Shown here one piece after another: positions 6,171-46,168 of a DNA stretch of 64,000 bases. Where the stretch lies: contig FTLJ01000306.1 of the NCBI GenBank assembly GCA_900155495.1, positions 54,083-118,082 of the forward strand. Direction: 5' to 3'. The position numbers and the translations under genes were made by a program. The notes under the pieces are model-generated. The model had not been told where the DNA came from. It did not search any database and saw only the letters and a program-made list of their open reading frames with translations. The DNA is from Porogramme epimiltina. Taxonomy: Eukaryota > Basidiomycota > Agaricomycetes > Polyporales > Polyporaceae. The stretch's first letter is position 1. The number at the start of each line of letters is the position of its first letter.

Positions 6171-6765
6171 TCAATCTATACTCATGTCCTCCGGCTCCGG
6201 TTTCAGAGGTTGCATGACTTGGCCTGCACCGTCGACCGAGCACACGCATGACTGAAGTTTCCCGTGTACGCATCCCTGATTTACGCCGATGTCCCGGCTG
6301 TGACGCTGTACGAAGCCGGTGAGGGTGCCTTGAACCCCGTCCCAAGTAACCCCTGAGCAATATGTTGTTATGTAGTTGGAAACGTAGATAGAAGGGTCAT
6401 AAACCCTAGTCAGAGTGAGCCCAAAGTCTAAATGGTCCTACCCCCCAGCATATCAGCACAAAGTCCTTAGTTGACCAATACGGAACTCGGTATTTATGAT
6501 ACGTAACCCACTAACTGATCCCTCTCGTCCCTCGCATCCCCGCCTTCCTTGAGCTGTTAAGACACAATTCACCACGCTCCGGAAGGTACAAATAATATGT
6601 ATTATGGTGGAAGGATGTTATGGCGTAGCACAAGGATGAAGGGACACCGTCGTCAAAGGACTTTCTGTCAAGTCAAGTAGGCTGGAGGAAGAGGTCGTCG
6701 ACAGGCCTGCGACGATATCAATGAATTGTTCTGTAGGCATGCGCATTGATGTACACACCAGTTGG
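5871..6765. other. Upstream region of F-box copy 1 and 3' flank of copy A
   Basis: From 5871 to about 6170 the sequence is a diverged match to the region upstream of F-box copy A (8561-8900), so the tandem duplication included promoter sequence. Similarity fades before any VEPERP coding sequence. From about 6575 to 6765 lies the 3' flank of copy A, which is also found after copy B. The piece between (about 6170-6575) shows nothing I can name. Confidence 0.5.
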
Positions 6766-8560
6766 TTATAACGTGGAGCTTGGATCCGAGACGACGTCGG
6801 CAGCCCGTGCCATGAGCCTTTTCTGACGCCTATGCCACAGGCGTTCTTCTACTCGCACCGCCCAAAACCTGCGATCGGACCACGAATTCGCCACGACCCA
6901 AGCACGTTGCGACCAGAACAGGTCATGGAGGACTTCTGAGTCCTGTTCCCCACCTGTCTCTTCGTCATCCCCTTCCCTGTTAAACGTCCGGTTGTAAATA
7001 TCTGGCGCTTGTTGTGGAAACCATAATGAAAGGAGTGATGCGACAGTGTGACAGGCTTCTTTGCCCAACAATGAGGAGCCGACTCCGAGCTTGGTCAAGT
7101 TGGAAAATCCCTGGGGACTCGTCTGGGCGTCGATAACATCTCCAACCTGAGCTTCGCATATGATGTCCTCAAGCTCGAACCCGAGCTCTATCAAGTGCGG
7201 GCAGTGCTTGATAAACGAATTGAGCGCGAAAAGTGTTGCGCGTGCGATCATGCTAGCAACTGAACGCCAGATGGGGACCATCCAAGCCTTCTGTATCTCC
7301 GGCCATCCACGCGCCATAGCCTCCAGTGTCGCGTCGTCCAGGCCAGCAAAAGAGGTTCCGCGAATTGTTATTTCCCTGAGACGGTGAAGTGATGCGAATG
7401 ATAGGAACGCGGACGGCGGTAGCGGCTCTACCTCCTCAGCCTTGTCGGTTAGTTCTCCCAGGACCATGTCTAGTATTTCGAAGGTGCTTGAGGAAGGGTG
7501 GTTGGATAGAGCGCTCCCGAATGCGACAAGTTCACCTGCCGAGACGGGTTCAACAGTGACGACAGTGACTTGTTCGAGCTTTGAAGATCGGATTGCGTGT
7601 ATAAGCTCCGTGCATATGGGCATGCACTCGAAGAAGAGAGAGGCGCGCTGCAATTTGGGGAAGGGGTGGTCCGCTGCTGAGAGTGTATCACCAAGCCCGT
7701 CCATGAAATCGATGGTGCGGATCCGGATAGAGAGTGTTTGAAGGAAGGAAAGGGAGGCGAGATGGGAGAGAACACGGGGGGTGACGAAGACGCCTTCGAG
7801 AGTACAATGGAGAAGATTGTGTAGGCCGCAGATGGATTCCATGAGGGGACTGGCAATGTCGTCGTGAAATTTGTGAACGGTGACGGAAAGATTCTCGAGG
7901 CGAGGAGAGCGTAGATTGAGGTGGGTATAGATTGCGATGAGGTTTTCCGGATTATCTCTGTCATCTGGTCCCTCCGGATACCATTTTGGATCCGCGGCAC
8001 CTCCTATGTGTAGAGATCGCAAAGATGTTCCAAGAAGGCGATATATGGGAGGAGGATAATGTGGTGTGTTCAAGAGCCTTCTCTGCCACGTCCGTACAGA
8101 GGTGAGATTTGGGAAGTCGAGTGGGCCAATATGAGCGAGGAGGGTAGACCACTCATGGGCGTTGAGTCGGACGACGGTGCGACTATGATCAATGACAACG
8201 CCTTTTAACAGAGAGGCGTAGTACCGAAGACGGGTGAGATCATCGGAGGTAATGTCACCCGCGAACGTCTAGTAACGGCGGCGTCAGATAGACGTCAGCA
8301 GTCACGGCTTCAATGTGGAGGTCACGTACGATATGCCGCGACCCCGGACGCACTGTCCATAGGCCTGGAGGGAGTGTGTACGCGATGACTTCGAAGCAAG
8401 GTATGACACGCCATAGTTCTTTGAGGGCGGAATCTTTCAGTGACTGACATGTCTGTGCAAGATTGGCCAGCGTTCTTCGATGACCAGTAAGTGACGAGCA
8501 AATTAGCGCTTGAACATCGTTTGGCAGGAAGGCGAGTCCAATTTTCCTAAGCATCAACAT
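6766..8560 (-). CDS. F-box protein, copy A (left inverted arm)
   Basis: A full-length paralogue of the F-box genes at 4.1 kb and 43.4 kb. Exons are 8560-8330 and 8268-6766, separated by a 61-nt intron, giving about 577 residues. The F-box segment (LAFLPNDVQALICSSL, then LANLAQTCQSLK) occupies roughly residues 8-50. The second exon encodes repeated leucine-rich strands such as LRSLHIGG and LENLSVTVHKF. Exon 1 is 231 nt, exactly as in copy B. It is divergently transcribed from the VEPERP gene across a 666-bp region, and the same arrangement recurs inverted at 42-45 kb. Open reading frame and splice sites are intact. By homology it is probably an SCF substrate adaptor; its substrate is unknown. 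Confidence 0.78.
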
Positions 8561-9226
8561 GGATGTGAGCTTCGGGACGTAGAGGGGTAGTGCGCGAGTA
8601 GCGACAGTTGCCACGAGGACGGTAACCTAGACACGGCGCACCACAGACAATGAAGGGGTTGGTACAGAATCAAACTCAGGCGTGCCCGAGCCGGAGCCAC
8701 GAAGAACAAGACCACACTCGCCTAGCGCCCATGTTCTGAGCCACTCGGCCGATTCCGAGGGCGGTCCGAGAAATTCGGACACTAAGCGCTTGTCCGTGAC
8801 GTCGTCACTCGAAGCTTGACTGAGCTTGAGGCCCGAAGTCTTGAACGTTCCGCCCAACTCCAAGCCGCGCCTGACGCCCGCTCGAGTGCGCACTTGAAGA
8901 TGCTCGGTGAATTTAGACATCGCCGTGTAACGCGCACCAGTCAAGTTGAAGACCACACCGACGAACAACAACATGCACATTGTCTGTGGCATGGCGGCGC
9001 TTTGGCCTCTGGTACACGGGGCTCGGGTTCGTAGACGACCACACTGGTGTCCCAGTGGCTCACATCACTTTTCTACGCTTTGGCCAAGAGAATCTCTGGG
9101 CAATGCGTCGAACGTGTCGCTACTCCTCCAAATGCTATAAAAGCACCCCCTCTTCTCCTCTCCTCCCTCATCCGCCTCCTCCATCGGACCCTACCAAGTC
9201 TCTCAGCTGAACTCTCGTTTGTGAAG
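8561..9226. promoter_or_regulatory. Bidirectional promoter of the F-box/VEPERP pair, arm A
   Basis: This segment separates the divergent F-box and VEPERP starts and is conserved in arm B at 42708-43387. A TATAAAA box at 9136-9142 lies about 85 bp before the VEPERP ATG and is kept in arm B. On the minus strand an open frame at 8992-8627 begins MPQTMCMLLFVGVVF and is largely shared with arm B, but a 1-nt indel breaks it there. It may be an unrecognised 5' exon of the F-box gene or chance. Confidence 0.55.
9136..9142 (+). promoter_or_regulatory. TATA box of VEPERP gene A
   Basis: TATAAAA lies about 85 bp before the VEPERP start and is conserved at the matching place in arm B (42795-42801, minus strand). 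Confidence 0.6.
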
Positions 9227-10602
9227 ATGTACCAAAAGTACAAACTGCAAATCACCCAAGGCAGCCGCGACGTGGCTCAAGGCAAGAAGATTACTGTACG
9301 CGAGTTCCCTTTCCTCTGATAGACTGTCTGAAGCTCACCACGCAAATGTTGTAGTCGCAGCGCGCTGTGGTTCAAGCGACCGGCGCAGCTATGCACGCTG
9401 TTGAAAAAGCCGCTAAGAAATGCTCCAAGATGCGCGAAAGAATCGTGGAGCCCGAGAGACCTGTGGAGCCCGAGAGACCTGTGGAGCCCGAGAGACCTGT
9501 GGACTCCGAGAGACCTGTGGAACTCGAGAGGCCTGCCATGGAACCCGAGAGAACGGTGGAGCCCGAGGGACCGGTGGAGCCCGAGACATCTGTGGAGCCC
9601 GAGGAACTTGTGGAAACCGAGAGACCTGTGGTCCTTGAGAGCCATGGGGGGTACGTTCCTCTCGTCTTCTACGGACCCAAGGAGAAGCCTGAGGTCACAC
9701 TCAAACGCCTCAATGACGTCGCAACCGAGGAAGAAGAGAATTTGAAGGAGTTACAGGCCGACGGTGACTTGCCGGCATACATGGCACTGGGGAAGGAAGT
9801 GATACAAAGTCTTCCGTCACCCCCGCCGGTTGACTGGCGGGGGTTCCTGCCCGGCATATCTATTTCCGACCTTAACAATTTTGTCAAAAACAATCAACTC
9901 GGCTATACCACCCGCACTGGTTGGGTCGACGTTCGATACTATGTCCCCACCGGCGTAAGTCTGTCTCCACCTGTGTCTGTGCTACGAATACGAATACTGA
10001 AAGCTTTCATTGACACAGGCACCTGCGGTGGACGATATACGTATGCCCACCGCTCTTCTACACCAGACCAACGCGTGGGGTTGCGACGCTATGGAGAGAG
10101 GAAAACACGGCTTCGCATGGATCTTCACTCCTCCGCACCGCAAGAACCTCCCAGAGAGCCCGTTCCATCTGTTTTGCACTAAGGATCCGGAGAAGTACGA
10201 GAAGGAAGCCAAAATATGCCGGTATATGGGCATCTACATCGTTCACCGCCTAGATGTCTCGCTACCAGCCCGGGCATGGCGTCAGCTACCTGAATCAGTG
10301 CGTCCGTCACCTCGTTGGTATACCGTTCACATGTGCTAACATGTCATTTCTTTCCCGCGCACGTACAGGTCCAGAAAGCGGCGGGCAGGATTTATTATGA
10401 CTGGAACCACGGGAGCGAGCGCCCAGACTCAGAGAAGGTCGAAGACGAGGTGGCCAAGTTCGAGCAGGGCATCTACCACGCACAGCTCGTGGTCTTTCAG
10501 CTCGTCGCATTCGGGAGCACGGAGTTCAGTAAGAAATTCAGGGGTGAATACAATCAGACCCTCAGGCCCCTGGGTAGGAATTCTTCTAGGCTTCGTGGGT
10601 AA
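9227..10602 (+). CDS. Unknown protein with VEPERP hexapeptide repeats, arm A
   Basis: I do not recognise this family. Four exons (9227-9295, 9355-9954, 10019-10297, 10369-10602) give 393 residues with all junctions in phase 0. The N-terminus (MYQKYKLQITQGSRDVAQGK) leads into a basic helix-like stretch ending AVEKAAKK. About eleven imperfect hexads of the type VEPERP follow, roughly residues 47-110. The C-terminal 250 residues look globular, with aromatic motifs such as GWVDVRYYVPTG and IYIVHRLDVSLPARAW. No signal peptide or membrane segment is evident. The inverted copy at 41439-42707 keeps every exon and identical lengths for exons 1 and 3 but fewer repeats. It is transcribed divergently from an F-box gene in both arms. 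Function unknown. Confidence 0.72.
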
Positions 10603-10863
10603 TCTACGGGCCCCGTGAGCTTAACCTAGCGGAAGAACAAGTGGGAAGTTCTTGATGTTTTTACGCGGAGGACTGGTGATTCTTCTACATGTTAATCACT
10701 ATGTATCAACATCACACATGCCTAAATCTATGTATACATGCCTTACCATGAACCTTCTGACACTGTACTCAGTCGAGTAACAAACCACTGACGAGGGCTC
10801 ATAACTACCTAAGACCAACGCAACAATTCTCATCAGCACCAGGACATATCTTACAACCCCCCT

Positions 10864-12672
10864 CTACCTCCTCTGACCATCGGTCTCCTGCCGATCCACG
10901 ACCATCCCACTCGTCTCCTTGCTCGCCCCGCCCCTAGAGCCCACATGGGCCTTCAGCCACGTCTTCCCCGCTTTCTTGATCAGCGCCTTCCGCGCGAACC
11001 CGCGCGCGTCGATGTACACGAGCGTCACGTTCCGCGCGGTGTGCGCCGCGAGCGCGGTCGAGCGCCCCGCCTCCGGCCCGTACTTGTGGCCGACGACCGC
11101 GGCGGCGCGCTCGCTGCCGACGTCGACCGCGCGGTGGATGGAGTCGTCGATGGTCGCGAGGACGAGGTTCGCGCTGAGCGCGAGCTTGTCGCGCGTCCGT
11201 AGGCGGCTGGGAGGCGGCGGCGGCACCTGCGGGGAAGACGTGACCGTAGAAGGAACAGAGCCGGGGACGGAAGCGGACTTGTCATTTGGTGGGAGCGGGG
11301 ATTTGCTCCGGGGAGGGAGAGGCGGTCCGGGCGTGGTGGCGGGGCTGCGGCGCGGGGGCAACGGAGGCCCTCCGCCGACGCTTGCTGGATACGGTGGTGG
11401 GGTGTCTGATTCTGGCGACTGGACGATCGGCCGGGGCGCGAGCGGAGGTGCCTGGGGAGTCGGCTGTGGAGCGCGGATAATGGGAGTGCTCTTTCCCTTG
11501 TCCTTTGCGCCAACGGCGCGTCCGATGATATTCTCTACGATTCCGACTGTCTTCTGACTGACTTTGACTGCCTGGCCGCTGATCGCGTAGGCGCGAGACA
11601 GAGTTTGCTGTGTGCGAGGATGTGAAAGCAACAAGAGGGCGCGAGGTGGAGGCGGAGGTGGAGTCCCGTCTTTAGGGGTTGGCGCGGGAGCGGAATGGTT
11701 AATGTAGTAGTTCGTTGCGTGGGTCAACCCTCCGAGGAGGAGCGACGTCGAAGATGAGATCGCATGACTAGGATGTAATCAGTACCTTTACACACATAAA
11801 TGCGAGCATCCCACACACCTGATCAGCGTCGCGGATTTCGTCATCCAGTCCTGGTCCTCCGGCGCGATCGCGCGCACAAATATCTCCCTAGCCTCGTCGA
11901 GCTCCGTACTCGGCTCCGCGTACGGCACGACACTCGTGCCCGCACCCGTGTATGCATCGTACACATCCTCCGGCAGCTCGAGCATCACAGGCGCAGGCTT
12001 ACCGTCCGCGCCCTTGGCCTGTGCCGCGAGCGCGGGGTCTTCCTGAATGCGCATCGGATTCGGTAGCTCCCCAACAACTTCCCCGCTCACCTCGTCCATG
12101 AGGACAAGCTTCCCGCGCAGCCCTTGCGGGGCGGGTTCACCTGTCCCCAGCGACGGCCCGTGCGGCTGGGCCTCAGTGGCAGTTGGAGCAGCTTCGGGCT
12201 CCTCGTGGTGCGCCGCGCCGCCCTCGACCTGCCAGTCGAACTCGGCGTACTGCGCGAGGATGTGGTCGAGCGCCTCGACGGTCTCCGCGCGGTGGGGGTC
12301 CGGGCGCGTCGGGAGCGGGACGAAGAGCTGGATCGCGGACGGCGAGGGCGCGCCGTCGGCGGGGGTCTTGGGCGCGTCTGGGTCCGCGCCGTGGAAGAGG
12401 TACGTGCGCGTGCCGTCGCGCCCGATGCGGCACGATATCGGCCGCGCGGGGTCGAGCGGGAGCTCGAGCGCGCCGAGGCGGAGGACGAGGATGAGCGAGC
12501 AGTCCGTGGGGGAGAGCGAGGCCGCGAGCGGCGCGGCGGGGTCGTCCTTGGGGGTGTCGGGCGCGAGGGTAACGCACTCGAGCGCAAGGGTGCCGGACTC
12601 GCTCGCACCGCTTGCGGAGAGGACTACGTCGGGGATGTGGAGCAGCACGAAGGCCTCTGGGTGAGTGGCCAT
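10864..12672 (-). CDS. Senescence-domain (spartin-like) protein
   Basis: The C-terminal half matches the senescence/spartin domain, found in plant senescence-associated proteins and in spartin, which binds lipid droplets and mitochondria. Two exons, 12672-11819 and 11767-10864, give about 585 residues. The first exon holds an uncharacterised N-terminal region with EEPEAAPT-type acidic linkers. The second holds the domain in two blocks, LLGGLTHATNYYINH through SGQAVKVSQKTVGIVENIIG and RTRDKLALSANLVLATIDD through ARNVTLVYIDARGFARKALI, split by a proline-rich linker. The start MATHPEAF was preferred over an upstream in-frame ATG because it precedes the first conserved-looking segment. A broken, 5'-truncated copy lies at 40.2-41.2 kb. 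Confidence 0.82.
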
Positions 12673-13574
12673 TGCTCGATGGGTGTCGATGGGGGTGGGG
12701 GAGTGGAAGGAAGGTTGAGCGTTGGGTGCTGTGCGCACCGTCGTCGCATGACATATGTAGTCCCGGAGCCAAGCCCCACTCCAGAGTTTGCGCTATCTAT
12801 GCTCCTTCATCGTCATGGCGCTACGGGCCGCGGCTGGTTCTGGAACTTGGCGTGTTGTAGGGCATCGATGTGTGCGACGGCGGCGAGTCTGGAAGGACAG
12901 GGGGTAGCACGAAGACAACTTGCAAATGCGTGCCATTGGCATGCGCCATGACCCAACACTACGGATCTCCTCCATTACATGTCATAATCATCTAGTCTAC
13001 AAGTCTCATCAAATTCGGCATTCTCATGTTCCTTGGTTCTGTCAAAGCCCTCGGAACATGCGGATAAGCTAATAGGGTTTTCATCCACTCTTATCCGCCC
13101 CGAACTCATACCGTTGTAGAGGCTTGTTTGTGATAGTCTTCTCAGCTAGCATGACCCTCGGATTTCAATGATTTTCTAGCTCACGGGTATTAAATCCCCC
13201 CACGTACCCAATTCCTAACGGTATGGACTACACAACACTGAACTAAGAACAGACGGGAGACGAAGGCAAAGAAGCCCCAAGGGCACGCGACGCGGTGAGC
13301 GGCGGCTCCACCCACCAGCGCGCAGGAACCCAGCGCAAAGGAGAACTAGGAGGTAGTGGGAGAGCGGCAGATATTCTGAAATAGTAGGCGGGCCGGAAGA
13401 GGGGAGGGGAGGGAGGAACGCGCGCGAAGTGTGTATTTAGAGTGAGTTCACGGTAGATGGGTGAAGAGAAAAAGATATATCTTCGTGACAGGCGTGCAAA
13501 GGGACGATGAACGTAAACCGGTCATGAGGTACGGACGTCTGGAGGCAGACGGGAACAGCAGGTCGTCCAGGTCA
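12673..13574. other. Intergenic region between spartin-like and Cdc42 genes
   Basis: Both flanking genes are on the minus strand, so this holds the spartin-like promoter and the Cdc42 3' UTR. No further coding exon or RNA gene is recognisable. The right part (about 13250-13450) is purine-rich. Confidence 0.4.
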
Positions 13575-14406
<832 letters not shown>

Positions 14407-15718
14407 GTCTCTCCGGGAGGTCTATCTGGAAGTAGCGGGGTGGCTGGATGGAGAACGCAGCATCAGCAGGCGTGCACTTTATAGACCGCGCCAGCACTCC
14501 GGCGCCCAAGGCCACAGAAAACGGCCACCGAGCGGCCTCGTCAAGGGGACGTTCATATCGGGCTGCAGGAGACATAAGCTTTCCACCCGCCGGCCACGGC
14601 CTCCGTTGTGCCTCCGTCTGCATTCAAACAAGGGCCACCGTGTCCTGCCTGCTTACGATCCTCCAAGTAGCATGAACTTGAACTTGAACGCGCAGCACCC
14701 ACGCGTCAAACTTTGACGTGGACATTCTCTGATACGACCCCGGATCCACGCGCACAGAATGAAGGCTCACCTTGGTTGTACAGGCAGAAGGAGGCGAAGA
14801 GACACGGCTTGCGGGTCGGGCGATGGTCTGATATGTATCGCGCGAGAAGGACGGTGCGAAGCCGGGTCTGGCTGGCAGCGACGAAGAAGAAGGGCGGGCG
14901 CGCAAGCAGACTGCTAGACGGGCGGGGCGATGGGAGGGTGGGTGAGAACAGCGGCGACGGCGGAACGGACGGGAGGGAGGGCGGGTGGTAGCGGACAGTC
15001 GGAGGGCCCTCGACGAGTTGGACTTGACGACCGCTTCACAGCTTTTCTAGAACGCCTGCCCTAAACCCCCTGATGATACGCCACACCCGTCTCACCCATT
15101 ACAACTCCACTCTTATCCGGATTACAAGCCCCCTTCACCACACTATTGACACGTTTGACAGCCTTCTACGGCCCTTTTACCGCTATTAACCCCGAGTAAA
15201 CACGGGCACGGATGCCCCTATATCAGACTTCCATCTGTCCGATAAGCCGCCCACGACTACAACACTTGGCCCGACACTCGCCCCCACACTCGGCTCCACA
15301 TATGATGAGCACAGTGGCCTGGCATAAACGGCCACCAGCGCTCCATCACGCCCTCGAGTCTTCCTCGTGCTTGGCCCCCACCTGCCTGAACTGCGCCCCT
15401 CCCACGACCTTTCCGCGTGGCTCGCCCGTAACGCCTGCCTAGAAGCAACTTAGAAGCGATCGAAGCTCCATGATGTTCTACTAATCTGTCAGAGAACCAG
15501 CAATAACGCCCATGGGTAACCAAGCCTCCCCGACGACCAGCCTCAAGCCTATGCATGTTCATGAAGGAATACAAGGACCGGATCCTCCACGCCGTTCAAT
15601 GGCGGTACTTGTATCCTAAATGCATGTCCTACAGGAGGTCTGCCATGAATGAGTCTAGACAAATACAACGACAGGGCAGTAAAATTGTGGCGAGTAACAA
15701 AGGCAAAAACAGAGCTCA
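14407..15718. other. Upstream region of Cdc42; no gene seen
   Basis: This 1.3-kb stretch carries the Cdc42 5' region. Reading frames inside it are short and unlike known proteins. Nothing else is supported. Confidence 0.4.
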
Positions 15719-15797
15719 GGCGCTACCAGGGCTCGAACCTGGGTTTTGGGAACATCCTTATCAGAATCCCAAGTGATAACCACTACACTATAGCGCC
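15719..15797 (-). tRNA. tRNA-Gln (CUG anticodon) with a short intron
   Basis: On the minus strand the acceptor GGCGCTA pairs with TAGCGCC. The D-arm region TAGTGTAGTGGTTATCAC is the fungal tRNA-Gln type. The T-arm is CCAGG-TTCGAGC-CCTGG. The anticodon arm, TGGGA paired with TCCCA, holds TTCTGA plus about 8 extra bases, so I read anticodon CTG with a 7-9 nt intron just 3' of it. Total length 79 nt agrees with a 71-72 nt tRNA plus intron. Confidence 0.88.
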
Positions 15798-17210
15798 ATA
15801 AAATTGAAAGCCCGTCACATCACTGGAAGGAGGATGAGGCAACCCTCACTTGAGATGTTTGACTTCAACCTTTGCGATTGATCGGAAGAAACGAGTCGCT
15901 CGCCGACACGACATGTGAGCATGGAGTTACCGTTTCGCCCTCAAAAGGAGATTAATGGCGTGCCCCTGCCTTGTGTTGTGCGAGCACACTGCGGTGCCGT
16001 TACATGCTTTCTAGGCTTAGCCTTCTCGCCGCCGCCACTCCCTGCAACTCAACTCCGTGATGCTGCCACACCCTCAAAACACACCTACTCCTCAGCGCAA
16101 CGCTCACGCGCCGCCGCCCCGCCCAAACGTGGCTGAGAGCGTGCACACCGCTCAAGTGGAGCTGTTGCGCTCACGACGCTGCCACGCACTCCAGTCTCGT
16201 GGGTCCTCAGGAGTCTCAGCCTCAGCCTTCTATGATCTCGGCGATGCGCCACCGCAGCGCGCATCGTGCAGATCCGCTGTGCCCGGTGGTGGAGCCCGTC
16301 TCGACCGCACCGTGCGCCGTGCGGTGGGCGCGGCACCCGCTCAACGAGGTGCTGTCGCGTGTGCGCGCCGGGTTGACACCCCTAGGGTCGGGCGGCGGTG
16401 GACGAGGCGCGGGTGCGCGGGCACTTGAGAGCGTCGGGCGGAAAGCGCGCCCGGTGGTCGCGTACGCCAACCCCCGAGAACATCAGCCCCAGCGCACCGG
16501 CCCGCGAGGTTATCCGACGTCCTCCACGGCGGTGTGTCGTCTTTGTCGGTGTTGTCGCGTATGTACGGGCCCCATTCAGTCCCGCACCGGGCTGTCCAAT
16601 AGTGTGCCACACCCACATGACCTTCCTCAGTTGCGGACCATCAAAACTGGGTGTCACGCTCACCTGAGTTGGTATGCAAGATGGTTTAGCGGATGCCGGC
16701 ATGGACCATAGTAAAGCATGAACCATAGGCCGTACGGGTAAGGACATGGCTGGGAGACGAGCGGGCAGTACGCGGCACACGACGTCGGGGGGGTAAACAA
16801 GATAGATCAACATCGTCCGTGCTCAACAAACGCCTAAAAGTCTATGGGGGCTGAATGGGAAGCGATAACGAGGATACTATTTACAAAGCGGACGACAGCA
16901 GGGTGAAGTGGGGGGGCGGACGTACACAGCGATCGGCCGACTCGGTAGCAAAAAGTCCGCTGGCGCTGCCCACAAAGTCCGAGCAATCCTGTCCGTCGTC
17001 CGAATACATCGTCGTACTGGGTCGTCTCGTCTCGGAAGCACTCTTCGAACGGCTACAGATCGTGGGGCGCGGGAGCAGCATAGGGGGGGAACACAGTCTC
17101 TGGCGCAGGGGGCAAGTTTGAGCACCGTCGCATCGGGGAGTGCCGACGGGGGGATGCGCTCACCTAACGGATACACATACATGTGGCGAGATAGTGATGC
17201 ACTGCCGTGT
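15798..17210. other. Intergenic region; no gene seen
   Basis: This stretch between tRNA-Gln and the small secreted peptide is GC-rich with overlapping short frames on both strands. None shows a recognisable domain, signal peptide or consistent splicing. Confidence 0.4.
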
Positions 17211-31840: not shown

Positions 31841-31936
31841 GGGTCTGGTTTTGGATAACCGAGGAACGAAAATACAGAGGAATGAGTAAGTTAGAGCACA
31901 TGTGTACATCGCGAAACCCAAATGTCTGTATGTGTA

Positions 31937-36202: not shown

Positions 36203-36598
36203 CTACTTCACTTATATCGGGTATTCTCCGCTTACACTTTCGCGGGGCAGTTATGCAGCTGAGTTCCCGGAGGGATGGAAGCTTTCAAAGTTAAGATAAC
36301 CAATGGCATCGAAACGTTATACGGCCCTTGTGTCGATATATTCACACATACGTTCGTACCGCCTGCCTGTTCACTCACACGTGCATGTACTGGAATCCGG
36401 TCCACGGAGCTTCGTACCACCCTCGCCACCGACTTGTATGTCGAACAGGGAACATGCTTCTATCATGCACAAGTGTCCTATATTGTCCCAGATCGGAATG
36501 TCCCTCAAATATGTCTACATGTCGAGATACGCAGTAGCGTCCGCTTCGCAGTTATAAGTCCATTGGCAAAGTCCTAGCTATTGTTCGGGATCCAAATC
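36203..36598. other. Convergent intergenic region
   Basis: This lies between convergent genes and is probably 3' UTR. Short frames here (about 36275-36577) look like composition effects. No gene is supported. Confidence 0.4.
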
Positions 36599-38592
36599 CT
36601 ATACGGTATATATATCGAAGCCCAGGGTGCGATATGCGGGCATATCTCTATAGTACTAGAAAAGCGTCGTTAGCGCGGACCCCAAAAATCTGCGTCCAAG
36701 CGATATACTCACCATCCCCACGAGCCCACCGTCCACCATATCCACGCGCGCAGTGAGGCGCGAGTTCCCCACGTGAAACAGCCTCGGCCCCGCGTACACC
36801 GCGTACGGCAACTCCGTCCTCACCTCCTCCGCGAACAGCTCCTTGTACGCGTCCGGTCGCTCGGGGTCGTCGAACAGCATCGGGCGCACGCGCGCGAGGG
36901 CGCCAGGGTCCCGCCGCCCGTGCGCGGCTGCGTGCGGATTGAGGTCGAGGATCGCGGACGGCCAGGGCGGGGGCGTGGGGCCGTCAACGCAAACGAGGGG
37001 GAACGCGGAGCCGAAGGGGCGCAGCGCGACGCGCGCGCTGTGCGCCTCGGCGCAGCGGAGGAGGACGCTTCCGCGCGTGCCCCACTCCGCCCAGGGTATG
37101 ATGCGCGGGCCAGGGGGAGCGTCTTGGTGCTTGCTCGCCCCCGCGGCGTAAGCGAGGAAGGTGCTGCGTGGTATGAGGAGGGTGCATCCGTGTTCGTGTT
37201 CTTGCGAGTTGTGGACGCGGCTAACTGTGAAGGACACGGCGACCAGGTTGGTCTCGGGGTCCGTCTGAAAGAGACGCGGGTCGTCCTGTGTGGGATGTGG
37301 AGGATGGCTTGAGTACATCCCATCGATGGTCATGATCACTTCCGCCGGAAGTGGTAGGCAAAGTGTGTATAGAGGAGTTGCGGTGATGGGGCCAGTCGAT
37401 TCAGCTGTAGATCCAGGTTGTATGCGGTAGATCTCCAACTTGCTCTCACACCCGAAGCCTACGGCGATGTGTTCGTCACCAATCAATGCATGATATATCC
37501 TGTGAGTTTCATAGGTTTGGTGCTGGATGGGTGTCGCATTCGCTTAAGCTCGTGGAATGATATTTCACTGTTTTGCTCACCCAGACTTTCTGGCCTGATG
37601 GCCAGTCCCAAACCTCAATGTCTGCGGAATCCGCAGAGCCAGAGCGAAGAACGTAGGCTATATACCTGCCTCTGATCTCGAGACCGTCGGTGAATACCTC
37701 CGCCAACACATTACCTGGATAGTTGGACGGTTCTGTGTGCAAGACAGGATATGCAGCTTTGGGATGGCTGGCTCCTAATCGCTCTAAAGATAGGATATGA
37801 AAGGTCACGATCCTGTTTTCATGCAAATCAATACTTCATCCGACGGTCCGCTGAGTATAATGATGCTTACGTGGTCCCCCGAGCGCAAATAGGGAGCACG
37901 GCTAGATCCTGGGCAACATCTACCGTACCGTCATACACCGTCCCGAGAATCGCACCCACAGGTGCTAGACGTCCGACCTGGAGTATCCATGTCTTCGTCT
38001 GTACGTTGCGGACGCCAGAGGCCGTAGTGCGCACGCAAAACCGCGTGGCGTCTATCGAGTGTTCCTCCTCGATGTAACAGATAGAGCCATCTGAAGACCT
38101 TGACCATTCGACTTCGACGCCGCTACCCAGGTCGACACAATGGCGACTAAATGCAGAGGTGCGCTGGAAACGACTCGTGTACTGGCGTAACGCGGCGTGT
38201 CTGTCCGAGATTGTCGCGCCTGAAGGACCTGATGCCCCTTCGACCATCCCCGAGCGTCGTAGCTCTATGGCAAGCTGAAGGCGAACATCTTTGTGGACCA
38301 GCCTCGCGAACAAGTGGCAGACCTGTGAGTACGGAGTTCAGAGATAAAAACTTGCTAGGTTGGAGACGGAACTCACTTCAGCACAACCTAAGAGATCATT
38401 TATGTCGAGATATGACAAGATATGGAGGACGAGCTCTTCGGGGAGGTCAAATAAAATCGACGTCTGAAGGATAGGGAGCTGTAGTGGACGACGGGCTGGT
38501 GTCGCGAAGTTAAAGAGATAGAGATATTTGGAGAACGGCAGGATGCGCATGGCTCCGTAGAGCAAGCGGGCTCGAAGCATTGGTCGTTGCAT
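36599..38592 (-). CDS. F-box protein, unrelated family
   Basis: A clear F-box, FDLPEELVLHILSYLDINDL then CAEVCHLFARLVHKD, lies at about residues 48-85, so this is a probable SCF substrate adaptor. Four exons 38592-38377, 38322-37871, 37812-37581 and 37522-36713 are in phase. The end is ambiguous: reading on through a strong GTGAGT gives a stop at 36656, whereas splicing 36712-36656 adds YYRDMPAYRTLGFDIYTV and stops at 36599 (about 588 residues). The rest resembles a beta-propeller-like region (IAYVLRSGSADSADIEVWDW) without clear WD signatures. It is not closely related to the three F-box genes of the duplications. Confidence 0.78.
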
Positions 38593-38877
38593 GGGTATAT
38601 TCGAGCAAAGACGGGCCCCTTAAGTAGACATGGATGCTAGCTGAGGCGACGATACGCCGACCGCACTGGTTGTGTCCAAGTACCGTCCACGACGTATTTG
38701 AAAAGTCAGAGTCAGGCGGCGTCCCATACCCGCTCCTGCTGTTCTTGGACACGCCCTATACTCAATCGATTTGGGTTAGGGTTCACTGCACCGGAGCAAG
38801 CTCCCTTGACTCCCGGACACCGCTAAGGACTTGTATCTGCGCAGTGCGCAGAACGCAGTCCCTCTTCTCCTACCGCC

Positions 38878-39851
38878 ATGGCTATCAACGCTAACGAAGA
38901 CACCGAATTGTGAGTGTTTTCGTATGCCCGAACGGACAACAAGTGACCCCGTGAGCCAGTAACGAAGCCCTGCGCAAGCACGGCATTCTTCCTCCTCGCC
39001 CACCAACACCGCGTACCCCTTCGCCGCCTCCGTCACCAACTCTTGAGGAGAAGTATGCGAACTATAGCGCAACAGAGCTCAGGGAGCTCGCCTCGGAGGC
39101 TCCGGACGACGAGACCGAGCGCATTCTCGAGCTGTTGAGGCGAAGACGGTTGCAAGAGGCCCGCAAGATGGAGATGGCGCGTTTCGGGCGTGTTTACCCC
39201 ATCTCCCGAGAAGACTACACGCGGGAGGTGACGGAAGCAAGTAAGGTTAACGAGGAGGGAGATGAGCAACAGCGAGGTACTGGTGTGGTCGTGTTCCTAT
39301 ACAAGGATGGGTGAGTCTCGGCTGTCTCTGGTTTATACACTACTCTCGTGCTTAAACTACTTCGCAGGATCCCGCACAGCGATCGGGCGAAGGAGCTCGT
39401 GAATGCTCTCGCTCAGCGACATCCTCATACCAAGTTCGTCTCGATCGTGGGCGACAAGTGCATAGAGAATCTCCCAGACGCGCGACTGCCTATGTTTATC
39501 ATATACCGCAAGGGCGAGGTGCTCAATCAACTCGTCTCGTGGGGTGCTGATCGGGAAAGGCGTATAGAGGGTACGTACTCGTGATGAAGATACGAATCAG
39601 GCCACAGCTCACCGCGCGGTTATGTAGAATTAGAGGCCGTGCTCATTCTCGGAGGTGCAATCATTCCGCGAGTGCGGAGGCAACCAGACGAAGATCGCGA
39701 CGGCTCCGATGGCTCTGACATAGACGACGACGATGACGACCCGTCATCCCGGATGCCGTCCGCAAGTACCAGGACGAACGCCCCGGCACCCAAGAACCTA
39801 AGAGGAAAGAAGGGGGACGATTCCGACTCGGACTTCGAGTTCGATTTGTGA
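38878..39851 (+). CDS. Phosducin-like protein (PLP2/PDCL3 type)
   Basis: Phosducin-like proteins have a thioredoxin fold and act as co-chaperones of the CCT chaperonin in tubulin and actin folding. Exons 38878-38909, 38960-39310, 39368-39570 and 39628-39851 give 269 residues. The N-terminal helical part has NEALRKHGILPPRPPTP and RRRRLQEARKMEMARFGRVY. The thioredoxin-like part has VVVFLYKDGIPHSDRAKELV, KFVSIVGDKCIENLPDARLP and MFIIYRKGEVLNQLVSWGAD. The C-terminus is acidic and ends DSDSDFEFDL, as in the PLP2/PDCL3 group. All junctions are in phase. It lies just left of the right inverted arm. Confidence 0.92.
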
Positions 39852-40214
39852 GAGAACAAACAGAGGAAGAGTACTGTAGCACTTTGTATCATTGTGCATG
39901 TATCGCTAGATCACCCCACGGTATGTCGAGAACAGTTCAATAGCTCGACGCGAAGCGTTGATTGGATTGCTTAAACAAAACAGGTTTGACATCATCTGAG
40001 TGACACCATGCAACCAGCTCTAGAAAGGTTGCCGCACCTGAGCAGATAACACCGCTACCCATGCATTGCATGCCCGGTGGGCGTGAACACCACACCAGCA
40101 ACAATGAGCCTCTATCTGCTTCACAGATGATCCACACAGACCTGCAGCTACCCACGCCGTCCAATTTTCCAACAGGTATGACGGGATAGGAATGGAAAGT
40201 CGCCTCCACGGGTG
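39852..40214. other. 3' flank of the phosducin-like gene up to arm B
   Basis: No gene is seen. The outer edge of arm B lies somewhere near 40215; similarity to the spartin first exon fades here, so part of this may be decayed duplicate. Confidence 0.35.
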
Positions 40215-41177
40215 GCCCTCTGGGAGTTACTGGATCTGATACGCGTCCGTGAGGCCGAGGGGTCAGTGAACCAGCACCGAAGGACGAAGTTCAAAACAGT
40301 GATCAGGTGTGTATGGTACTCTGCTTTTATATGCATAATGGTACTGATGACGTGCTAGCCGCACAATGTCGTCTTCAGCATCGTTCCTCCTTCGATTGAC
40401 GCACGGGACAAACTACTACATTATTCATCCCGCTCTCGCGCCAACCCTAAAGACAGGACCCCACCACCGGCTCGCGCCCTCTTGCTGCTTTCACATCCTC
40501 GTACGCAACGGACACTGTCGCGCGCCTACACGATCAACGGCCAAGCGGTCAAAGTCAGCCAGAAGACGGTCGGAATCGTGGAGAACATTATCGGGCGCGC
40601 CGTCGGTGCAAAGGGCGGGGGCAAGAGCACTCCCACAGCCGACTCCACTGGCATCTCAACTCGCGCCCCCGCCGATCGTCCAGTCGTCGGAATCAGACAC
40701 CCCACCATCGTATCCAGCAAGCGTAGGCGGGGGACCCCCCCCCCGCCGCGGTCCCGCTGCCACGCCAGCACCGCCTCTCCCCGGAGCAAATCCCCGTTCC
40801 CTCCAATCAACAAGTCTGCTTCCGTCCCCGGCTCTCTTCCATCTACAGCCGAGCCTTCCCCGCAGGTGCCACCGCCGCCCAGCCACCTGCGGACGCGCGA
40901 CAAGCTCGTGTTGAGCGCGAACCTCGTCCTCGCGACCGTCGACGACTCCATCCACCGCGCGTTAGACGTCGGTGGCGAACGTGCGGCCGCGGCCGTCGGA
41001 CACGAGTATGGGTCGGAGGCGGGGCGTTCGACCGCGCTCGCGGCGCACACCACGCGGAACGTGACGCTCGTGCACATGGACGCGCGCAGGATCGCGCGGA
41101 AGGCGCTGATCAAGAAGGCGAGGAAGACGAGCAGGATGACCATGGATCGACAGATGCCTGATGGTCAAAGGAGGTAG
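40215..41177 (+). pseudogene. 5'-truncated, frameshifted spartin-like pseudogene
   Basis: This is the arm-B copy of the senescence-domain gene at 10864-12672. It keeps only the last few codons of exon 1 (recognisable around 40215-40308), the intron and exon 2. Exon 2 needs several frame changes: the opening LLRLTHGTNYY is in one frame, SGQAVKVSQKTVG-like sequence (NGQAVKVSQKTVGIVENIIG) in another, the proline-rich linker returns to the first, and the C-terminal block (RTRDKLVLSANLVLATVDD) is again in the second. Nearly all of the N-terminal exon and its promoter are missing. A truncated C-terminal product is possible but unlikely. The break shows which arm is derived. Confidence 0.82.
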
Positions 41178-41438
41178 AGGGGAGTTGTAAGATATGTATG
41201 TCCTGATACTGATGGGAGCTGTTGAGTTGGTCATAGATGACTGTGAGTCCCCATAAGTGGTCTGTTGCTTGATTGAGCGCAGTGTCGGAAGGTTCATGTT
41301 AAGGCATGTACACATAGATATAGGCATAATGTTGGTACATAATGGTTAACATACAGAGAATCACCAGCCCTCTACGTAAAAACCTCGGGCACATCCCGTT
41401 CGTTCTTCCGCTCAGTTAAGTCCACGAAGACCCGTGGA

Positions 41439-42707
41439 TCACTTCCGAAGCCTGGAGGAAGTTTTACCCAGGGGCCTTAGGGTCTGATTGTATTCGAATG
41501 TCAGTTTATCACTGAACGCCTTGCTTCCGAGCTTGATGAACTCGAGGACCACGAGCTGCGCGTGGTGAATACCTTGCTCGAACTTGGCCATCTCATCCTC
41601 GACCTTCCCTGGGCGCTCGCTTGGGGGATAGCAGTCATAGTGGATCTTGCCAGCCGCCTTCCGAACCTGTAAGTTGACGGCAATGAGATCACATATCAGC
41701 GTGTGAACGATACACCAGCGAGATGACGGACGCACTGGTGCAGGGAGCCGACGCCATGCCCGGGCTGGCAGAGAGACGTCTAGGCGGTGAGCGATGTAGA
41801 TACCCCTATACTTGCATGTTTTGGCTTCCTCCCAATTTTTAACAGGATCCCCGGTGCAGAAGAGGTGGAACGGGCCCTCGGGGAAGTTCTTGTGGTGCGA
41901 AGGAGTGAAGGTCCATACGGATCCGTGTTGTCCCCTCTCAAAATTGTGGCAACCCCAAGCGTTGTTCTGGTGTACAAAAACGATGGGCACACGTGTATCA
42001 TCCACCACAGGTGGCTGCGTCAATCAAAGCTTTCAGTAATCGTGTGCTTAGACAGTGTGGAGACAGACTTACGCCGACGGTGACATAGTAACGAACATCG
42101 GCCCAGCTACCGGGGATGATATAGGCCATCTGATTCTTCTCGCAAAATGCCTCGATGTCGATAGTATTCATCTGGGGAAGAGGCTGGAACCAATCAAGCG
42201 GCCCGGGTGGTTGAAGACTTCCCGCTACTTGCGCCCCAAGGGTCGTATATGCGTCTAGCGGGTCACATTTGGCCTTTGCATCCTTCTCTTTCAACTGGGT
42301 TGCGACGTCATTGAGACGTTTGAGTGTGACCTCAGACTTCTCCCGGCGTCCTCTGAGGAAGATGTACCCCCCATGGCTCTCGAGCATCGGAGGTCTCTCG
42401 GTCACCACAGGTCCCTCAGGTCTCTCGGGCTCCACAGGTCTCTCGGGCCCTACAGGTCTCTCGGGCTCCACAGGTCTCTCGGGTTCCACGGTTCTCTCGC
42501 GCTTCTTAGAAGATTTCTTAGCGGCCTTTTCAACCGCGTGTATGGCTGCTCCCGTCGCTTGAACCACAGCGCGCTGCGACTACAACATTTGCGAGGTGAG
42601 CTTCAGATAGTCTATCAGAGTAAAAGGAACTCGCGTACATTGATCTTCTTGCCTTCAGCCACGTCGCGGCTGCCTTGGGTAATTCGCGATTTGTACTGTG
42701 GGTGCAT
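41439..42707 (-). CDS. Unknown protein with VEPERP hexapeptide repeats, arm B
   Basis: This is the inverted paralogue of the gene at 9227-10602. Exons are 42707-42639, 42579-42073, 42014-41736 and 41666-41439, giving 360 residues, all phase 0. Exons 1 and 3 have exactly the same lengths as in arm A (69 and 279 nt). Exon 2 is 93 nt shorter because only about five or six hexads remain (about 42395-42506), with other small indels. The N-terminus starts MHPQYKSRITQGSRDVAEGK, and the C-terminal part keeps IYIAHRLDVSLPARAW. Splice sites and frame are intact despite visible divergence, so it is probably still under constraint. Function unknown. Confidence 0.7.
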
Positions 42708-43387
42708 CTTCACAAACGAGAGTTCAGCTGAGGAGAGACTTGGTAGGGTCCGATGGAGGAGGCGGATGAGGGAGGGGAGGAGAAGAGGGGGTCCTTTTAT
42801 AGCATTCGAGGGAGTAGCGACACGTTCGACGCATTGTCCAGAGATTCTCTTGGCCAAAGCGAAGAAAAGTGATGTGAGCCACTGGGACACCAGTGTGGTC
42901 GTCTACGAACCCGAGCCTCGTGTACCAGAGGCCAAAGCGCCGCCATGCCACAGACAATGTGCATGTTGTTGTTCGTCGGTGTGGTCTTTAGCCAGACTGC
43001 TGCGCATTACATAGCGACGTCTAAGTGTACTGAGGATCTTGAAGTGCGCACTCGAGCTGGCGTCAGGCGCGGCTTGGAGTTGGGCGGAACGTTCAAGACT
43101 TCGGGCTTCAAGCTCATGATCAGTCAAGCTTCGATCGCGAGTGACGACGTCACGGACAAGCGCTTAGTGTCCGAATTTCTCGGACAGCCCTCGGAATTGG
43201 CCGAGTGGCTCAGAACATGGGCGCTAGGCGATGTGGTCTTGTTCTCCGTGGCTACGACTCGAGCACGCCTGAGTTTGATTCTTTACCAACCCCTTCATTG
43301 TCTGTGGTGCGCCGTGTCTAGGTTACCGTACTCGTGGCAACTGTTGCTACTGGCGCACTACCCCTCTACGTCCCGAAGCTCACATCC
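42708..43387. promoter_or_regulatory. Bidirectional promoter of the F-box/VEPERP pair, arm B
   Basis: This matches 8561-9226 in reverse orientation. TATAAAA on the minus strand (42795-42801) precedes the VEPERP start by about 90 bp. The plus-strand frame from 42945 (MPQTMCMLLFVGVVF) is shared with arm A but shifts by a 1-nt loss near 43230. Confidence 0.55.
42795..42801 (-). promoter_or_regulatory. TATA box of VEPERP gene B
   Basis: TATAAAA on the minus strand, in the same place relative to the start codon as in arm A. Confidence 0.6.
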
Positions 43388-45166
43388 ATGTTGATGCTTA
43401 GGAAAACTGGACTCCCCTTCTTGCCGAGCGATGTTCAAGCGCTAATTTGTTCGTCACTTTGTGGTCATCAAAGAACGCTGGCTGCTCTTGCACAGACGTG
43501 CCAGTCACTGAAAGGTCCCGCCCTCAAGGAGCTATGGCGTGTCATACCCTGCTTTGAAGTCTTCGTGGACACACTCCCTCAAGAGCTATGGACAGTGAGC
43601 GAGTCCGAGTCGCATATCGTACGTACTATACTTCCACAGGTCGAGGATCGTCCTATCTGATACCACCGTTACCAGAAATTCGTACGGGACGTTACCTCCG
43701 ATGATCTCGCTCGGCCACGGCACTACACGCCTCTTGTCAAACACGTTGTCATTGATCCTATGCACACTATCTACGATTTCGACAGCTCTGCGTGGTCCGC
43801 CCTCCTGGCACCCAATATCGGTCCACTCAGTTTCCCGAATCTTACCTCTGTACAGACGTGGCAGAGAAGGCTCTTGAACACACCCCACGATCCTCCACCC
43901 ATATATCGCCTTCTTGGAAAATCTCTGCGATCTCTACGCATTGGGGGTGTCGCGGATCCAAAATGGTATCCGGAGGAGCCAGATGACAGAGATAATCCGG
44001 AAAACCTCATCGCAATCTATACCAATCTCGACCTACGCTCTCCTCGCCTCGAGAATCTTTCCATCACCGTTCACAAATTTCACGATGACATTGCCGGTCC
44101 CCTTATGGAAGCCGTCTGCGGCCTACACAATCTTCTCCATTGCACTCTTGAAGGCGTCTTCGTCACTCCCCGTGTTCTCTCCCATCTTGCTTCCCTTTCC
44201 TTACTTCAAACACTCAATATCCGGATCCGCACCATCGATTTCATGGACGGACTTGGTGATACACTCTCAGCAGCGGACCACCCCTTCCCCAAATTGCAGC
44301 GCGCCTCTCTCTTCTTCGGGTGCATGCCCACATGCACGGAGCTTATACACGCAATCCGATCTTCAAAACTCGATCAGGTCGCTGTCACCATCGCTGAACC
44401 CGTCTCAATGGGCGAACTCGTCGCATTCGGGAGCGTCTTATCCAAACACCCCTCCTTAGGCACCCTCGAGACACTCGACATGGTATTAGGAAACCTGGCC
44501 GACAACGCCGCTGAGGTAGAACCGCTACCGCCATCCGCGTTCCTGTCATTCGCATCACTCCACCGTCTCAGGGAAATTACGATTCGCGGGATCTCCTTTG
44601 CCGGCCTGGACGATGCAACACTCGAGGCTATGGCCCGCGGATGGCCGGAGATACGGAAGGCGTGGATGATGCCCACCTTCCGTCCTGTGGCTAGTATAAC
44701 CGCGCACGCAACACTTTCCGCGCTCGATGCGTTTATCAGGCACTGTCCGCACACGATAGAGCTCGGGTTCGAGCTTGAGGACATCACACGCGAAGCCGTT
44801 GGAGCTGTTATCGACGCCCAGACACGACCCCAGGGTTTTTCCAACTTGACCACGCTCGGAGTCGGCTCCTCGTTCTTGGACAGAGAAGACTGTCACATTG
44901 TGGCGTCACTCCTCTCGTTATGGTTTCTACGACGGGTGCCACATATTTGCATCTGGACGTCGAAGGACGACGAAGAAGGGGGTGAGGAGAACAAAGAAGT
45001 TCTTCGACGACTAGACCGGGCGTTGCGCAACTGGTTCCTGGCGGGCATGTGGTCCGAGAGAACTTTTTTGGCGGTACGAGTGGAAGAACGTTTATGGCGT
45101 AGGCGACAGAAAAGGCTCATGACACGGCCTCCCGACATCGTCTCGGATCCAAGCTCCCCGTTATAA
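43388..45166 (+). CDS. F-box protein, copy B (right inverted arm)
   Basis: Exons 43388-43618 and 43676-45166 give about 573 residues. Exon 1 has the same 231-nt length as copy A, and the F-box segment reads LPFLPSDVQALICSSL then LAALAQTCQSLKGPALKELW. The second exon shares most residues with copy A across its whole length, including the FMDGLGDTLSAADHPFPKLQ block. The acceptor used is ACCAG|AAATTCGTACGG, which keeps the frame into DVTSDDLAR. No stop or frameshift is present. Like copy A it is divergent from a VEPERP gene. It is probably an SCF adaptor with an unknown substrate; divergence lies mainly in scattered substitutions and a shortened C-terminal acidic loop. Confidence 0.78.
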
Positions 45167-46168
45167 TCATCATATTCTCCATCGGTGCGTACGTCAACGC
45201 GCATGACTACGGGGCAATTTGTTGATATCGTTACAAGCCTATTGACGGCGGTGTCCCTCCGTCCTTGTGCTACACCACAAAATCCTTCCACCATCATCTA
45301 TCTCATTTGTACCTTCTAGAACGTGTGTAAGCTATGTTTCAGCGACTCACGGAAGATGGCGAGGTGACGGATGAGAGGAACAAGCTAGTAGAATACGTAT
45401 TTTTTTATCATATTAGGGTCCACATCATGATCAGTTTACTCAGAGTTTTGTGCCGACATGCTAGGGGGTTGGGAGGGCCCTATGTACTTAATGGCACTCA
45501 CTCTGACTCTTCATGACTCGTCTATCTGTATTTTCAACCGCGCACGGGGACGTGCTGCCCAGGAACCACTTAGGACAGAATTAAACGCCTTTCTGGCTTT
45601 GTACAGTTTTAGCGTAACTAGAACGTCGGTGTGCACGCTGGAAACCTCAGTGGCGCATGGGCTCGATGCATAGGAGAATCTAAACCTACGAGAAAAGACC
45701 TCCCTTCTCGTCTGACTCGACACAATTCATTCTTGCTAGGATCTTTCCAATGTAGAACACTTCTTTGTAGTACTATTTCACCCTAGCCGCATCTTACGGA
45801 GTATCCTGACCACGCTCGAGGAAAACTAAGCAGCGAAGTCCTTTGCTCTACTCTGGGAGCGAATATCACATTTTCACGGACATGCGTCATAGTTGACAGA
45901 GAACAGCTGGTACAAATCGCACAAAACCTATCAACTACAAGCCTATGCAATGTCCGAGGTAAGTCCGTAAAAGTCCGTAAAAGTCCGTGTCAACGTCATC
46001 TGGGATTCCTGGCCATGAAAGGTCCAACAAATCAACAACAGTGGAGGCTACCACCGCCCTCCACAGCAACCTTCTGCAGAGCCGAGCGCGGAACCTGGGA
46101 CGGCCGACAAGTCAGCACATGCGGCACACTTCTCGGGATCATTCCCGGAACGGCGAGACTCACCCGTT
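45167..46168. other. Intergenic region beyond arm B
   Basis: The first ~160 bp are F-box 3' flank shared with arm A. The rest is AT-richer and holds no recognisable gene. Three exact or near-exact copies of the 10-mer AAGTCCGTAA lie at 45961-45989. Confidence 0.45.
45961..45989. repeat. Short tandem repeat, three 10-bp units
   Basis: The unit AAGTCCGTAA occurs twice exactly and a third time with its last base or two changed. It lies about 180 bp beyond the 3' end of cerato-platanin gene 1. Confidence 0.8.

What the first reader, a model, noticed from the sequence alone, without database searches (positions are those of the whole stretch)
6575..45325. Large, old inverted segmental duplication with ~5 kb arms about 29 kb apart
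Arm A (about 6575-11830) and arm B (about 40215-45325) carry the same three genes in mirror order, together with promoters, introns and 3' flanks. Divergence and indels rule out an assembly artefact from identical sequence. Inverted arms at this spacing can drive inversions of the ~29 kb between them, which holds essential genes such as CWC22, SF3B4 and Cdc42.
Basis: seen in the sequence. Interest (0 to 1): 0.8.

Follow-up and report, generated by a model that had tools for sequence, protein, structure and literature searches.

The report
Inverted duplication with recombining arms
A polypore fungus carries two mirror-image copies of a 5-kb gene block about 28 kb apart, a real but fairly ordinary duplication in which two gene pairs are intact, the third copied gene is a broken stub, and the two copies appear to have swapped sequence.

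Summary
Window 6375-11855 matches 45538-40270 in inverted orientation: 78.5% identity over 5551 columns, non-coding DNA included. The interpretation needs three changes. (1) Two genes are intact in both arms: an F-box/LRR-like gene and a DUF6697-like gene, head to head. The third, a Senescence-domain gene (SEN), is complete only at arm A; arm B holds a truncated, frameshifted 3' part. The arms belong to a family with members on three more contigs. (3) The arms did not simply diverge. Synonymous divergence is 0.34-0.43, but the shared promoter region differs by only 0.055, although it differs by 0.48 from another family member. That fits ectopic gene conversion. A protein from an independent dataset is an A/B mosaic, natural or an assembly chimera. 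Recombination between arms is supported; inversion of the 28 kb is not shown. A new member of a known kind.

The parts
6375..11855 (.). Arm A of the inverted duplication
   Evidence: self-BLASTN; base-level alignment
40270..45538 (.). Arm B of the inverted duplication (inverted relative to A)
   Evidence: own-genome searches of arm B's two borders find no further copy of the DNA outside the arm, except 65 bp (45539-45603) in a match with C736 of 67% identity
6766..8560 (-). A1: F-box/LRR-like gene, exons 8560-8330 and 8268-6766, 577 aa, open
   Evidence: splice model; weak LRR_14 match to the B copy only, below cut-off; F-box named from the exon 1 motif by recall, no Pfam match
9227..10602 (+). 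A2: DUF6697-like gene, 4 exons, open, with an in-frame PVEPER-type repeat
   Evidence: (PF20411 E 1.8e-4, 21.9 bits against cut-off 23.9)
10864..12672 (-). A3: complete Senescence-domain gene, exons 12672-11819 and 11767-10864, 585 aa; most of exon 1 lies beyond the arm
   Evidence: PF06911 E 2e-26; homologues in Polyporaceae and other Agaricomycetes
43388..45166 (+). B1: F-box/LRR-like gene, 573 aa, open
41439..42707 (-). B2: DUF6697-like gene, 4 exons, open, splice sites conserved
40270..41177 (+). B3: truncated 3' part of the Senescence-domain gene (intron, exon 2 and about 36 bp of exon 1), with frameshifting gaps of 1, 4 and 14 bp and a 48-bp deletion
8561..9226 (.). Shared head-to-head promoter region of A1/A2, the least diverged part of the arms (K 0.055); core of the proposed conversion tract, about 8467-9467 (84-99% in sliding windows of 100 sites)
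42708..43387 (.). Counterpart of the promoter region in arm B
7563..8112 (.). Second high-identity A/B tract inside the LRR gene (88-98% in sliding windows of 100 sites)
4103..5876 (-). T: tandem third copy of the F-box/LRR-like gene, 573 aa, outside the arms
77..705 (+). EMC4 gene (start codon candidate at 77; the 3' end was not modelled), linked to the Senescence-domain gene in relatives
   Evidence: PF06417; contig co-occurrence in relatives
11856..40269 (.). Inter-arm segment (28.4 kb) with Cdc42 (14406-13666), an RRM protein and an MA3-domain protein; an 11-N gap at 27780-27790

Best explanation
In an unnamed Polyporaceae-like fungus, a gene module settled beside the old Senescence-domain gene. 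The module is an F-box/LRR-like gene and a DUF6697-like gene sharing one promoter region. A segment holding the module and at least the 3' part of the Senescence-domain gene was then copied in inverted orientation about 28 kb downstream, making arm B. Both module genes stayed open in both arms, while the Senescence-domain copy decayed. Since then the arms have recombined with each other (gene conversion), which keeps the promoter region and part of the LRR gene alike while the rest diverged to dS about 0.35. Shown: the duplication, the truncation, the uneven divergence and the family. Inferred: the A-to-B direction, gene conversion as the cause, and the copying mechanism, which may be repair-linked template switching but left no signature found here.
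For: Inverted match with shared introns and intergenic DNA. Synonymous divergence agrees at both ends: LRR dS 0.343, SEN dS 0.363; DUF6697 dS 0.432. Promoter-region K is 0.055 for A/B, against 0.143 for A/C736 and 0.478 for A/C904, so constraint alone is unlikely. Of 1244 informative sites 578 group A with B, 345 A with C736 and 321 B with C736; the richest A/C736 stretch has 24 of 30 consecutive sites, at 8304-8399, reached in 0 of 2000 permutations. A and B are sister copies (support 100/99). Full SEN exists only at A; B lacks most of exon 1. The independent protein P0003 (first 306 of 378 residues used) switches from B-like to A-like: states absent from six other copies are 10 with B and 0 with A up to residue 200, and 0 and 5 after; 0 of 10000 permutations give as sharp a switch.
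Against: SEN omega between A and B is 0.29 (bootstrap 0.19-0.41), lower than I would expect if B had been a dead fragment from birth. B may first have held a complete, working SEN that was cut down later, so the original arms may have been longer. The C629 fragment also has a low omega, 0.20, so a mutation bias at GC-rich third positions could explain both. Some promoter constraint is likely: proximal promoters are also slower than third positions for T/A (K 0.204 against 0.559) and C736_2/A (0.184 against 0.356), though hardly for C904/A (0.402 against 0.450). P0003 comes from a 2.6-kb contig and could be an assembly chimera, and I chose the residue-200 split after seeing the data (the permutation test allows for any split). 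The EMC4 linkage rests on contig lengths and model numbers, not on viewed gene maps, and 7 of the 21 contigs exceed 1 Mb. Of the 25 species, 4 do not match: Grifola frondosa and Panaeolus cyanescens; Trametes sanguinea and Taiwanofungus camphoratus, where the two tables seem to list different assemblies or strains.
Confidence: 0.8

Rival explanations
1. The duplication is recent (K about 0.05 everywhere at first), and the more diverged parts were later overwritten by other family members or evolved fast.
For: Mosaic site pattern. In the block at A 8151-8450, B is further from A, C736 and C904 than these are from one another.
Against: No other full-length SEN was found that could overwrite it, yet its dS is 0.363. 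The non-coding LRR 3' flank and the DUF6697-SEN intergenic region are at K 0.23-0.34.
Confidence: 0.12
2. Selective constraint on a shared bidirectional promoter, not gene conversion, explains the low divergence of the central tract.
For: The tract includes the region between two head-to-head genes. T/A proximal promoters (K 0.204) are closer than their third positions (K 0.559), and likewise C736_2/A (0.184 against 0.356).
Against: C904 keeps the same gene order, but its intergenic region is at K 0.478 from A. The A/B identity also runs into DUF6697 intron 1 (K 0.071) and parts of the neighbouring exons.
Confidence: 0.15
3. The duplicated block originally held the complete SEN gene. Arm B lost exon 1 by a later deletion, so the present inner boundary is a deletion scar, not the duplication breakpoint.
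For: SEN omega 0.29. The three codon positions differ by 13.1, 7.3 and 23.4%.
Against: No trace of exon 1 or of the DNA beyond it was found in the roughly 420 bp between B's boundary and the next reading frame to its left. GC-rich third positions may bias omega.
Confidence: 0.4
4. Assembly artefact, or an allelic haplotype joined in inverted orientation.
For: The assembly is fragmented (926 contigs) and has an 11-N join between the arms at 27780-27790. Open frames cross the N run, but in low-complexity sequence with a nominal gap length, so this says little about the join.
Against: The arms differ by 21% with 59 gap openings. Inter-arm DNA 36000-39900 has no second copy, only one partial match of 68%. 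B-specific residues recur in an independent dataset.
Confidence: 0.03

Closest known systems
Inverted segmental duplications with arm-to-arm gene conversion, as in mammalian sex-chromosome inverted repeats (recalled; review PMC3308322 seen only in a search listing with the start of its abstract)
   Same: Two inverted arms on one chromosome, gene-bearing, with tracts of unexpectedly high identity
   Different: Arms here average 78.5% identity, not near 100%; the high-identity tracts cover about 1.5 kb; no sex-linked context is known
Sclerotinia sclerotiorum MAT inversion region between 250-bp inverted repeats (PMC3574095, abstract and section list read)
   Same: Inverted repeats flanking a gene-bearing segment in a filamentous fungus, where crossing-over could flip the segment
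   Different: There the 3.6-kb inversion is observed and segregates 1:1; here no inversion is seen, the segment is 28 kb and the longest exact shared run is 67 bp
Lineage-specific F-box/LRR-like family expansions of mushroom-forming fungi (recalled)
   Same: Dispersed and tandem paralogues, mostly open, diverged in sequence
   Different: Here the gene is paired head to head with a DUF6697-like gene at A, B, C736 and C904

Membership tests
Segmental duplication (inverted) | Two genomic copies longer than 1 kb sharing coding and non-coding DNA, at distinct sites | tested here: met
   Identity is 78.5%, below the 90% used as a working cut-off for recent segmental duplications in mammals (recalled)
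Inverted repeats under arm-to-arm gene conversion | Tracts of the arms markedly more alike than neutral sites in the same arms, without matching constraint in other copies | tested here: met
   K 0.055 against dS 0.34-0.43; A/C904 K 0.478. Partial promoter constraint in other copies is not excluded
Inverted repeats that drive inversions | Both orientations of the inter-arm segment seen in strains or relatives | not testable with these tools
   no other genome of this fungus with linked arms was available to me; only indirect contig co-occurrence for SEN-EMC4
F-box/LRR protein | Recognisable F-box domain | tested here: not met
   no F-box Pfam match for the full B1 protein at E up to 1 (the full A1 protein was not scanned); the name rests on motif recall
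F-box/LRR protein | LRR solenoid | tested here: inconclusive
   LRR_14 E 0.011, 15 bits against cut-off 40, for B1; no match for A1 or T exon 2; structure model too poor to use, mean pLDDT 39.6
DUF6697 (PF20411) | Pfam gathering score reached | tested here: inconclusive
   21.9 bits against 23.9, E 1.8e-4, for A2 with its internal repeat shortened in the query
Senescence-domain protein (PF06911) | Senescence domain above cut-off in the complete gene | tested here: met
   93.4 bits against 24.6, E 2e-26, for A3

The most novel reading that the evidence does not exclude
The two arms are a live recombination pair. They exchange sequence in nature, producing hybrid F-box/LRR genes such as P0003, and the 28-kb segment carrying Cdc42 and splicing-factor genes exists in both orientations among isolates. 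Arm-to-arm crossing-over would then both diversify a young head-to-head gene pair and flip an essential-gene block.
Probability: 0.15. Interest if true: 0.6.

Novelty: new member of a known kind. Interest (0 to 1): 0.35.

Why it matters
It is a compact case in which the relative age of a fungal inverted duplication (dS about 0.35 at both ends), its likely direction of copying (from a conserved neighbour gene) and later arm-to-arm exchange (a tract at K 0.055) can be read from one window. It warns that reading 'three genes duplicated' from sequence alone can hide a dead third copy. It also names a testable site for inversion polymorphism around essential genes in a polypore.

Tried and rejected
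Rejected: uniform divergence since one duplication (regional K runs from 0.055 to 0.58; its region borders are within a few bases of the final exon borders). Rejected as sole cause: promoter constraint (C904). Not supported: a recognisable repeat at arm B's borders; the DNA outside arm B has no other copy found, except 65 bp in a C736 match. Arm A's borders were not searched in this way, and no transposon search was made. Rejected: one ordered cerato-platanin/LRR block. Cerato-platanin genes lie beside the LRR genes at arm B, C904 and C392, but by my reading of coordinates in three different relative orientations.

Led nowhere: structure prediction of the LRR exon (mean pLDDT 39.6; no fold search was run on it); overlap of the end of contig C904 with C736 and C392 (no shared 15-mer; the first 200 bases of C736 and of reversed C392 agree at 192 of 200); literature on DUF6697 (0 papers) and on 'inverted duplication' with 'basidiomycete' and 'F-box' (0 papers). 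Six further paper searches gave only background. PMC8955403 (passages) reports no evidence for segmental duplication by synteny, in a passage on Ganoderma australe.

Limits: one search scored only the 7995 candidates sharing most words, so the family's apparent restriction to five 'ena' proteins is not proof of absence elsewhere. One search also lists five distant LRR matches (23-25% identity) on C212, C66, C439 and C125 that I left out of the eight-copy count. One search printed only matches of 90 bits or more. One search used one three-way comparison (A, B, C736_2) over window 6301-11000. In it the longest A/B run (21) was reached in 0 and the longest A/C736 run (11) in 1 of 2000 permutations, while the B/C736 measures were not unusual (1351 and 173 of 2000). 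One search's translation of the A2 gene used wrong exon ends and is discarded; one search is the corrected one.
Full report
WHAT IS THERE. Self-BLASTN of the window returns one long inverted match, 6375-11855 against 45538-40270, with 78.5% identity over 5551 columns and 59 gap openings. Base-level alignment shows that identity falls to about 35-52% beyond the arms at both ends. The window lies at the end of contig C250 of a 41.9-Mb, 926-contig assembly. The Senescence-domain protein's nearest named relatives are Polyporaceae, with Epithele typhae at 66%. The organism itself is not named by any tool.

GENES. Each arm holds an F-box/LRR-like gene (577 and 573 aa, both open) and, head to head with it, a DUF6697-like gene (open in both, splice sites conserved). 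The F-box label is my reading of the exon 1 motif. Pfam finds no F-box and only a weak LRR match in B1, and a structure model was too poor to help. DUF6697 falls just below the Pfam cut-off. The third gene carries a Senescence domain (PF06911). It is complete at arm A, where exon 1 (12672-11819) extends past the arm. Arm B keeps only the intron, exon 2 and about 36 bp of exon 1, with gaps of 1, 4 and 14 bp that shift the frame and a 48-bp deletion.

A FAMILY, NOT A PAIR. The own-genome search finds the LRR gene in eight close copies: A, B, a tandem copy T at 4103-5876, two on C736, two on C392 and one on C904. Seven are open and one C392 copy has a stop; five further matches of 23-25% identity are left out. 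A DUF6697-like gene lies beside the LRR genes on C736 (complete) and C904 (cut by the contig end), with partial copies at contig ends of C736 and C392 and a distant one on C85. A and B are sisters (100/99). C736 also carries about 118 bp of the Senescence gene's 3' end beside its module. This suggests that the module already sat next to that gene before C736's copy split off. A separate 496-bp piece of Senescence exon 1 lies on C629 at 93% identity.

DIRECTION. Among these are a 43-kb contig of Cubamyces sp. BRFM 1775, a 96-kb contig of Termitomyces with locus numbers 14 apart, and Daedaleopsis nitida with model numbers two apart; 7 of the 21 contigs exceed 1 Mb and say less. Four do not match: Grifola frondosa, Panaeolus cyanescens, and two species (Trametes sanguinea, Taiwanofungus camphoratus) that seem to be represented by different assemblies or strains. 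This supports arm A as the ancestral Senescence site with its left flank in place, and hence no net inversion on that side. It is indirect, because I saw no gene maps.

DIVERGENCE AND EXCHANGE. Synonymous divergence is 0.343 in the LRR gene, 0.363 in Senescence exon 2 and 0.432 in DUF6697. The LRR 3' flank and the DUF6697-SEN intergenic region are at K 0.336 and 0.234. Yet the 665 aligned bases of shared promoter region are at K 0.055. The same region is at K 0.143 between A and C736 and 0.478 between A and C904, so general constraint does not explain it, although the proximal promoters of T/A and C736_2/A are also slower than third positions. High identity runs from about 8467 to 9467 (84-99% in windows of 100 sites), and again from 7563 to 8112 inside the LRR exon (88-98%). 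Around 8050-8420 the pattern reverses and A groups with C736 instead of B: at most 24 of 30 consecutive informative sites, at 8304-8399, against 0 of 2000 permutations. This patchwork fits ectopic gene conversion. Because site-type clustering can partly follow rate differences, I rest the claim on the promoter contrast and on the A/C736 block.

AN INDEPENDENT HYBRID. The search of about 5.8 billion sequences scored 7995 candidates and returned five homologues of the LRR protein, all from short 'ena' contigs. One of them, P0003 (first 306 of 378 residues used), matches B at 24 and A at 2 of 32 A/B-differing sites up to residue 200, and A at 18 and B at 5 of 25 sites after it. States absent from all six other copies are 10 with B and 0 with A in the first part, and 0 with B and 5 with A in the second. 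No permutation of 10000 gives as sharp a switch. Either A and B recombined in another isolate, or that contig is an assembly chimera. The other four resemble C736_1 (97%), C736_2 (92%), C904 (95%) and T (74%).

AGAINST MY READING. Senescence omega between A and B is 0.29 (0.19-0.41), and 0.20 between A and the C629 piece. A fragment dead from birth should give a higher value, so arm B may once have had the whole gene, or third-position mutation bias is at work. The inner boundary may therefore be a later deletion.

INVERSION. The longest exact A/B run is 67 bp. The inter-arm segment holds Cdc42 (14406-13666), an RRM protein and an MA3-domain protein, and an 11-N gap (27780-27790); open frames cross the gap, but in low-complexity sequence, so that is weak support for the join. 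Arm-driven inversion is possible, since the arms appear to exchange sequence, but nothing here shows it. The Sclerotinia MAT locus (PMC3574095, abstract read) shows that such flips occur in fungi.

VERDICT. A confirmed, well-resolved member of a known kind, with corrected anatomy, probable direction and evidence of arm-to-arm exchange. Interest is moderate.

Noticed in passing
46173-46589 and 57955-58371: A second inverted pair: two cerato-platanin genes (PF07249 tested for the first; the second is 81% identical in protein), 86% identical over 417 bases with no gaps, about 11.4 kb apart, with ABC-transporter and OST48 genes between them.
   Followed up: partly
L034 (C629:2821-3318): A 496-bp piece of Senescence-gene exon 1 at 93% identity on another contig, about 1 kb before an open frame resembling a fungal-type kinase (kinase named by recall).
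   Followed up: partly
C736:1 and C392:57155 (L025, L029): Two contigs end at the same point inside DUF6697-like copies and share 94% identity over 710 bp, hinting at another recent duplication that the assembler could not cross.
   Followed up: partly
9436-9650: In-frame PVEPER-type repeat in the DUF6697-like gene, longer in arm A than in arm B (84 gap columns).
   Followed up: no
36776-37093 and C250:52037-52381: Two related uncharacterised genes (68% DNA identity) about 38.5 kb apart on the same contig, the further one left of the window.
   Followed up: no
arm B's outer flank, and LRR loci on C904 and C392: Cerato-platanin genes lie within a few kb of LRR genes at arm B, C904 and C392, by my reading in three different orientations.
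   Followed up: partly
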